Below, one piece after another: positions 31,335 to 31,706 of a stretch of DNA of 64,000 bases. The notes below the pieces were generated by a model that worked only from the letters and a program-made list of their open reading frames with translations, did not search any database and had not been told where the DNA came from. Both the position numbers and the translations under genes were made by a program. How positions within the stretch are numbered: position 1 is the stretch's first letter; the number at the start of each line of letters is the position of its first letter. This DNA comes from Sphingomonas sp. MA1305 (GTDB taxonomy: Bacteria > Pseudomonadota > Alphaproteobacteria > Sphingomonadales > Sphingomonadaceae), in assembly GCF_016107325.1 (NCBI RefSeq), contig NZ_RCVT01000001.1, positions 558,001-622,000 of the forward strand, given 5' to 3'.

Positions 31335-31706
31335 ATGCCGACGATCAACCAGCTGGTCCGCAAGGGCCGCGAACCGCAGAAGGCCAAGTCCAAGGTCCCT
31401 GCGATGGAGCAGAACCCGCAGAAGCGCGGCGTCTGCACCCGTGTGTACACGACGACCCCGAAGAAGCCGAACTCGGCGCTGCGCAAGGTGGCCAAGGTCC
31501 GCCTGACCAACCAGCGCGAAGTGATCAGCTACATCCCGGGCGAAGGCCACAACCTGCAGGAGCACTCGGTGGTGCTGATCCGCGGCGGCCGTGTGCGCGA
31601 CCTTCCGGGCGTGCGCTACCACGTGCTGCGCGGCGTGCTCGATACGCAGGGCGTCAAGGACCGTCGCCAGTCGCGTTCGAAGTACGGCGCCAAGCGGCCG
31701 AAGTGA
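31335..31706 (+). CDS. rpsL: 30S ribosomal protein S12
   Basis: S12 (123 residues) sits at the decoding centre and controls translational accuracy. The conserved TTTPKKPNSALRK (Lys43 present) and GEGHNLQEHSVVLIRGGRV loop are intact. Residue 88 (Met as 1) is Arg, encoded by CGC, in GGRVRDLPGVRYH, where most bacteria have Lys; this is the classic streptomycin-resistance position. The start MPTINQLVRKG follows GAGGTGAAGG. It is the first gene of the str operon. Confidence 0.98.
   Translation: MPTINQLVRKGREPQKAKSKVPAMEQNPQKRGVCTRVYTTTPKKPNSALRKVAKVRLTNQREVISYIPGEGHNLQEHSVVLIRGGRVRDLPGVRYHVLRGVLDTQGVKDRRQSRSKYGAKRPK

What the first reader, a model, noticed from the sequence alone, without database searches (positions are those of the whole stretch)
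31335..31706. S12 naturally carries Arg88, a streptomycin-resistance residue
Codon 88 (Met as 1; E. coli mature position 87) is CGC, Arg, in GGRVRDLPG, whereas E. coli and most bacteria have Lys. Lys-to-Arg at this site is a classic streptomycin-resistance mutation; Lys43 is unchanged. Sphingomonads are widely handled as streptomycin-tolerant, so this may be the fixed, intrinsic cause in the lineage rather than a lab mutation. The neighbouring sequence is otherwise conserved, so it is not an alignment artefact.
Basis: partly seen in the sequence, partly recalled or inferred. Interest (0 to 1): 0.72.

Follow-up and report, generated by a model that had tools for sequence, protein, structure and literature searches.

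The report
Sphingomonads' inherited streptomycin-resistance residue in S12
This sphingomonad's ribosomal protein S12 carries arginine at position 88, a change that by its family tree arose once among most sphingomonads and likely makes them naturally streptomycin-resistant, an idea already in print; a related family that kept the original lysine includes a genus whose one isolate with test data found here was streptomycin-sensitive.

Summary
In detail: window 31335-31706 encodes a normal S12 with Lys43 and Arg88 (CGC, 31596-31598), in a single-copy rpsL. Inside that family some genera keep Lys88 (Sandarakinorhabdus, Polymorphobacter, Pacificimonas and relatives, mostly Sphingosinicellaceae). 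A tree without S12 puts the 42 Arg88 rows in one clade and the 9 Lys88 rows outside, so Arg88 was gained once there; Arg61 and Ser19 travel with it; no reversal was confirmed. The family-wide published statement needs narrowing. A published disk-test table fits: 7 of 7 isolates of crown genera were resistant; the one Polymorphobacter was sensitive to streptomycin though resistant to kanamycin. The classic 16S sites are unchanged in the one crown genome readable. Against: no MIC of this organism, those isolates' rpsL unsequenced, rpsL1 sensitivity partial and variable. The cause is likely, not proved here.

The parts
31335..31706 (+). rpsL, ribosomal protein uS12, 123 aa plus stop, single copy in the genome
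31596..31598 (+). codon 88 (E. coli mature 87): CGC, Arg; inferred ancestral state Lys (AAR). CGC is three base changes away from either Lys codon
31461..31463 (+). codon 43 (E. coli mature 42): AAG, Lys, unchanged
31515..31517 (+). codon 61: CGC, Arg; Arg61 in 42 of 42 crown rows, Phe or Tyr in the Lys88 family members read
31389..31391 (+). codon 19: TCC, Ser; Ser in 42 of 42 crown rows, Asn or Glu in the Lys88 family members read
31867..32337 (+). rpsG (S7), next gene of the str operon; used as a tree marker
   Evidence: homologues in 61 of 61 loci; name given from gene order and recall, not from a family search
32441..34534 (+). fusA (EF-G), third gene of the str operon; main tree marker
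   Evidence: homologues in 61 of 61 loci; named as above

Best explanation
S12 in this sphingomonad carries Arg88 instead of Lys88, an inherited state that by the tree appeared once at the base of the crown sphingomonads and is likely the cause of their natural streptomycin resistance. Shown here: the residue and its single-copy gene; Arg88 motifs confined, within the order sample, to one family; Lys88 in some genera of that family and in the other families read; one gain on a tree built without S12; no confirmed reversal. Taken from published work: residue 88 lies in the S12 loop beside streptomycin and helix 18 of 16S rRNA, K88R is selected by streptomycin in another alphaproteobacterium, and it costs little in E. 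coli. Inferred: the same residue gives resistance in this organism; the CGC codon, three base changes from Lys, and the accompanying Arg61 and Ser19 may have helped to lock it in.
For: Arg88 at 31596-31598, only one rpsL. Order survey: 200 of 296 genomes match the Arg88 motif, all 200 among the 213 of family f1, 0 of the 83 from seven other families. The 13 f1 misses: 10 are Lys88, 1 is Arg88 with a neighbouring change (G385), 1 (G481) could not be read, 1 (G547) gave no S12 match. Tree of 61 rows on 14 proteins without S12: 42 Arg88 f1 rows (all but G385 and the window picked for their motif, so their residue is given, their single clade is the result) form one clade, SH-aLRT 100; the 9 Lys88 f1 rows fall outside; 2 changes in all, the second in the unrelated G054. 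Search for exceptions: 47 of 397 family genomes match a Lys88 motif, in 16 genera; 30 loci read; one (G1147) is a foreign contig in a 77% complete assembly; 28 of the other 29 were placed on a short tree, 27 outside the crown. Named Lys88 records, 56 (Lys88 was part of the motif): Sandarakinorhabdus, Polymorphobacter, Sphingosinicella, Sandaracinobacter, Sandaracinobacteroides, Pacificimonas, Glacieibacterium, Thermaurantiacus, Hankyongella, some rhizobial genera and unnamed MAGs; no title names Sphingomonas, Novosphingobium, Sphingopyxis, Blastomonas, Rhizorhabdus or Erythrobacter; 41 of 56 placed on a tree, none in the crown clade. Phenotype, PMC11123896 Table 5: streptomycin-resistant 7 of 7 isolates nearest to Sphingomonas, Novosphingobium, Blastomonas, Rhizorhabdus and Erythrobacter (3); FW250, nearest to Polymorphobacter multimanifer, sensitive, although it is the only kanamycin-resistant isolate of 14 and resists 8 of the 10 drugs; P. 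multimanifer DSM 102189 is in the Lys88 list. K88R arises under streptomycin selection in A. fabrum (PMC10521367, passages) and is the exception to substantial cost among five E. coli rpsL mutants (PMC12416847, passages). No APH(6) match; rsmG present with an open frame.
Against: No MIC or allele swap was done here. The rpsL genes of the PMC11123896 isolates were not sequenced in the passages read; their residue is inferred from genus, and the Arg88 state of the named crown genera rests on PMC4741004, since the genomes surveyed here are unnamed. Only one Lys88-genus isolate with a phenotype was found. Rhodopseudomonas OHM24 in the same table is resistant, so other routes to resistance exist in the class. 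In S. granuli the rpsL1 allele only slows growth on 200 mg/l streptomycin, streaks looking equal after 18-20 h, and its effect varies between species (PMC11165598). The 16S pocket could be read in only one crown family member, not in the window's genome. The AadA search had no positive control; the APH(6) controls rang only below the cut-off; APH(3'') and efflux were not searched. L206 (Lys88) fell inside the crown on a short tree, explained by its EF-G. Six Lys88-motif genomes of two genera (g264, g479) were neither read nor placed.
Confidence: 0.83

Rival explanations
1. Resistance of sphingomonads comes mainly from another determinant (a modifying enzyme, efflux, poor uptake or an rRNA change) and Arg88 contributes little.
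For: Some alphaproteobacteria have such routes: A. fabrum uses a chromosomal strB (PMC10521367); a Rhodopseudomonas isolate is resistant in PMC11123896. rpsL1 gives only partial and variable sensitivity in sphingomonads.
Against: No APH(6) match in the genome; rsmG open. The 16S stretches around the classic streptomycin sites (sites recalled) agree between one Arg88 family member (G469) and two Lys88 ones (G418, G518) except for two letters in the 900-region stem and one or two near 1480. The seven crown isolates are kanamycin-sensitive, which speaks against a general uptake or efflux cause. An added rpsL allele makes resistant sphingomonads more sensitive, which a modifying enzyme would not readily allow (inference).
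Confidence: 0.12
2. Arg88 was fixed for reasons unrelated to antibiotics (drift, or tuning of decoding speed and accuracy together with Arg61 and Ser19), and streptomycin resistance is a side effect.
For: Arg61 and Ser19 are in 42 of 42 crown rows; Arg88 also occurs in three other alphaproteobacterial families of the sample, in one of them with Arg61; K88R costs little in E. coli.
Against: Nothing here tests selection. This rival concerns why the residue spread, not what it does, and can be true together with the best explanation.
Confidence: 0.4
3. The residue is a recent laboratory mutation or a sequencing or assembly error in this genome.
For: None found.
Against: 200 of 213 family genomes match the Arg88 motif; the codon is CGC, not one of the one-step AGR codons that a Lys-to-Arg laboratory mutant would carry.
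Confidence: 0.01

Closest known systems
Natural Arg87 (mature numbering) in RpsL of Sphingopyxis granuli TFA, Sphingomonadaceae and Erythrobacteraceae, proposed as cause of natural streptomycin resistance (PMC4741004, passages read)
   Same: Same residue, same protein, same lineage, same proposed effect.
   Different: That paper speaks of both families as a whole; here some genera, mostly Sphingosinicellaceae, are shown to keep Lys88, the gain is placed on a tree, and Arg61 and Ser19 are found to travel with it.
rpsL K88R streptomycin-resistance mutants of E. coli, M. tuberculosis and A. fabrum (PMC10521367, PMC12416847, passages read)
   Same: Lys to Arg at the same position of uS12.
   Different: Those are single-residue mutants (selected or engineered); here the residue is old in the clade, encoded by CGC and accompanied by Arg61 and Ser19.
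rpsL1 / pAK405 counterselection in sphingomonads (Kaczmarczyk et al. 2012; paper not held, described in PMC11165598 and PMC6472365, passages)
   Same: Exploits natural streptomycin resistance through an S12 allele that gives sensitivity.
   Different: A tool; the exact change in rpsL1 was not seen in any text read here.

Membership tests
Bacterial ribosomal protein uS12 (TIGR00981) | full-length match above the curated cut-off | tested here: met
   223.3 bits against cut-off 112.95, residues 1-123
S12-type intrinsic streptomycin resistance (K88R class) | Arg at residue 88 in the only rpsL copy | tested here: met
S12-type intrinsic streptomycin resistance (K88R class) | residue fixed in the lineage rather than sporadic | tested here: met
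   201 of 213 family genomes Arg88 by motif or reading; of the other 12, 10 are Lys88 (9 placed outside the crown clade, the tenth, G532, in the same genus as three of them) and 2 could not be read
S12-type intrinsic streptomycin resistance (K88R class) | high streptomycin MIC of the organism | not testable with these tools
   no strain or MIC at hand; disk tests of relatives only
S12-type intrinsic streptomycin resistance (K88R class) | restoring Lys88 gives sensitivity | not testable with these tools
   rpsL1 work in print points that way but its change was not seen and its effect is partial and variable
Resistance by 16S rRNA or RsmG change | altered 530 loop or 912 region, or loss of rsmG | tested here: inconclusive
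   rsmG present; classic 16S sites unchanged in G469 but not readable in the window's genome
Resistance by streptomycin phosphotransferase APH(6) | PF04655 match in the genome | tested here: not met
   0 matches at E 0.01 (3 of 14 control genomes rang, none over the cut-off)
Resistance by ANT(3'')/AadA | PF13427 match in the genome | tested here: inconclusive
   0 matches but no control rang either

The most novel reading that the evidence does not exclude
Arg88 was fixed once in the crown sphingomonad ancestor as part of a co-adapted S12 set (Ser19, Arg61, Arg88) that makes resistance free of cost, long before medical streptomycin; the border with the Lys88 family Sphingosinicellaceae is a natural experiment that splits the sphingomonads into a resistant and a sensitive half, so streptomycin-based isolation media have been blind to one whole family.
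Probability: 0.38. Interest if true: 0.5.

Novelty: already known. Interest (0 to 1): 0.3.

Why it matters
The core (Arg at this site explains natural streptomycin resistance of sphingomonads) is in print, so the finding itself is ordinary. The useful additions are a corrected boundary and a test: the Lys88 genera are predicted to be streptomycin-sensitive, so streptomycin enrichment for 'Sphingomonas' would miss them and counterselection with a sensitising rpsL allele would not work in them. It is also a clean case of a clinical resistance substitution carried by a large clade without drug treatment, with two companion S12 changes that could be tested as cost compensation.

Tried and rejected
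Strict coupling of Arg61 and Arg88: suggested by 61 of 61 rows, the independent G054 among them, but rejected as a rule because three other Arg88 S12 proteins have Tyr61 (G214, G141, G005). Reversal inside the crown: one candidate (G1147) rejected as a foreign contig; its S12, S7 and EF-G are 83, 73 and 67% identical to the window's, and its best S7 and EF-G matches among the rows compared are 78% and 71%. One Lys88 locus (L206, G977) fell inside the crown on a short S7 plus EF-G tree; its S7 is 91-95% identical to its own Lys88 genus and only its EF-G start is crown-like (89% to L090), so I do not count it as a reversal. Lys43 as a contributor: Lys in all 61 rows. Motif hits outside the family in the phylum sample: 6 genomes, 5 of them not S12. 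Search for 'sensitive to streptomycin' with Sphingomonas: 5 papers; I read passages of two (PMC11837543, PMC6472365), which concern counterselection plasmids, and saw the other three in the listing only. Of the papers holding streptomycin and a Lys88 genus, I read passages of three: PMC11123896 has test data; PMC7947762 and PMC3324416 only cite Sandarakinorhabdus.

Full report
Observation. The gene at 31335-31706 (+) is rpsL: 123 codons and a stop, uninterrupted, TIGR00981 at 223.3 bits. Codon 88, counted from Met, is CGC (Arg) at 31596-31598 and codon 43 is AAG (Lys). The genome has one rpsL match. Downstream lie what gene order and recall identify as the rest of the str operon and the S10 and spc ribosomal genes; the 20 further ORFs used as queries, from 31867 to 45406, gave homologues in 54 to 61 of 61 loci.

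Is it in print? Yes. PMC4741004 (2016; passages read) says that RpsL of Sphingomonadaceae, Erythrobacteraceae and strain TFA has Arg at position 87 (mature numbering) and that this could explain natural streptomycin resistance. PMC9907089 (passages) speaks of a natural rpsL mutation in most Sphingomonas. PMC11165598 and PMC6472365 (passages) describe rpsL1, an allele that makes naturally resistant sphingomonads sensitive; in S. granuli the effect is slower growth on 200 mg/l, lost to view after 18-20 h, and it varies between species. Kaczmarczyk 2012 and Vanbroekhoven 2004 are not held (known here through other papers and recall).

Distribution. In the order sample 200 of 296 genomes match an Arg88 motif; all 200 are among the 213 genomes of the window's own family (f1), none among the 83 genomes of seven other families. 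Of the 13 f1 misses 11 could be read: 10 Lys88 and one Arg88 with Lys at 86 (G385); G481 could not be read and G547 gave no S12 match. Sixteen genomes of the other families were read in the same calls, all Lys88. In the class sample an Arg88 motif is found in 7 of 289 genomes: the 4 of f1 plus G214, G141 and G005; G054 is a further case, missed by that motif because of Val at 83. In the phylum sample 24 of 398 genomes match; 18 are f1, and of the other 6 only G214 is S12. I did not confirm an S12 in every non-matching genome.

Origin. A tree of 61 rows on 14 ribosomal and elongation-factor proteins, S12 left out, puts the 42 Arg88 f1 rows in one clade (SH-aLRT 100) with the 9 Lys88 f1 rows outside it, and needs two changes in all, one of them in the unrelated G054 (short search, one substitution model). 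Forty of the 42 were picked because they matched the Arg88 motif, so the result is their grouping, not their residue. Whether the Lys88 genera are one branch or several below the crown is not resolved. Lys88 in all 16 outgroup-family genomes read makes Lys the likely ancestral state. In 42 of 42 crown rows Arg88 goes with Arg61 and Ser19; the 9 Lys88 f1 rows have Phe61 and Asn19. Further Lys88 f1 loci show Phe or Tyr at 61 and Asn or Glu at 19. The codon is CGC in 40 of 42, CGT in 1, CGA in 1; CGC and CGT are three changes from Lys, CGA two. This would make reversal hard (inference).

Exceptions. A 397-genome sample of the family has 47 matches to a Lys88 motif, in 16 genera. Thirty came with loci: 29 have sphingomonad-type S12 with Lys88 and one, G1147, in an otherwise Arg88 genus, is a foreign contig. 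Of the 29, 28 could be placed on a short tree; 27 lie outside the crown and L206 inside it, which traces to its EF-G. Of the 17 without loci, 4 had been read; the rest were not read, and two genera among them (g264, g479) were not placed. A scan of the named genome collection for a Lys88 sphingomonad motif returned 56 stretches; Lys88 was part of the motif, and residue 61 is Phe in 54 and Tyr in 2. The named genera are Pacificimonas, Hankyongella, Glacieibacterium, Sphingosinicella (soli, microcystinivorans and a MAG), Polymorphobacter, Sandarakinorhabdus, Sandaracinobacter, Sandaracinobacteroides and Thermaurantiacus, besides Jiella, Bauldia, other Hyphomicrobiales and unnamed MAGs. PMC12210278 (passages) puts Pacificimonas, Glacieibacterium, Polymorphobacter, Sandarakinorhabdus, Sandaracinobacteroides, Thermaurantiacus and these two Sphingosinicella species in Sphingosinicellaceae, its clade 2; other species called Sphingosinicella stand in its clade 3, and Hankyongella does not occur in the text. 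Forty-one of the 56 could be placed on an S7 plus EF-G tree; none fell in the Arg88 clade. So the published statement about the whole family needs narrowing.

Phenotype. PMC11123896 (passages and Table 5) tested 14 marsh isolates with 10 ug streptomycin disks, resistance meaning no clear zone. The seven isolates nearest to Sphingomonas, Novosphingobium, Blastomonas, Rhizorhabdus and Erythrobacter (three) are all resistant. FW250, 99.32% identical in 16S to Polymorphobacter multimanifer, is sensitive, although it is the only kanamycin-resistant isolate and one of the two that resisted most drugs. The seven crown isolates are all kanamycin-sensitive, as expected for an S12 effect specific to streptomycin (inference). 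Outside the order, the Brevundimonas, Falsiroseomonas, Rubrivivax, Cereibacter and Rhodobacter isolates are sensitive and the Rhodopseudomonas isolate is resistant. In the passages read the authors do not link this to rpsL, and rpsL was not sequenced. Other papers opened for Lys88 genera held no test result; most listed papers were not opened.

Other causes. No APH(6) family match, with controls that rang only below the cut-off; rsmG present as an open frame; AadA search uninformative. The 16S stretches around the classic streptomycin sites (5' end, 530 loop, 912 region, 3' part of h44; sites recalled) agree between Arg88 G469 and Lys88 G418 and G518 except for two letters in the 900-region stem and one or two near 1480. 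The window's own 16S could not be read.

Mechanism. Residue 88 lies in the S12 loop near streptomycin and helix 18 (PMC10521367, passages). K88R appeared under streptomycin selection in an Agrobacterium fabrum strain lacking strB, in two of eight colonies analysed. Among five E. coli rpsL mutants K88R is the exception to substantial fitness cost (PMC12416847, passages). That fits a residue which a clade could keep. The step from residue to resistance in this organism is inferred; an R88K allele would settle it.

Verdict. Real, correctly read, biologically sensible, already known in its core. The boundary with the Lys88 genera, the single origin and the accompanying Arg61 and Ser19 are additions; I saw no statement of them in the passages read, and no title or abstract start in the searches announces them.

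Noticed in passing
L206 (G977), S12-S7-EF-G stretch: S7 matches the genome's own Lys88 genus (94.9% to L207) but the EF-G start is crown-like (89% to L090), as if fusA had been replaced by horizontal transfer with a break inside the str operon.
   Followed up: partly
L037 (G054), L182 (G214), L187 (G141), L188 (G005): Other alphaproteobacterial genomes, of three families, with Arg88 in S12: G054 with Arg61, the other three with Tyr61; G214 is a 1.3 Mb genome using AGA. Their streptomycin phenotypes are unknown here.
   Followed up: partly
L220 (G1147): A Lys88 rpsL contig of non-sphingomonad type in a 77% complete sphingomonad assembly; it looks like contamination.
   Followed up: yes
window 26448-28778 (+) and 23782-25563 (-): Upstream of the ribosomal cluster lie a DPP IV-type S9 peptidase and a GH15 glycoside hydrolase by Pfam; a tRNA-Trp at 30278-30353 (-) lies between them and rpsL.
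   Followed up: no
G297, G295, G305, G294, G323 (order outgroups): In these outgroup assemblies the contig ends about 3 kb downstream of rpsL, as expected if a duplicated tuf gene breaks the assembly there; not tested.
   Followed up: no
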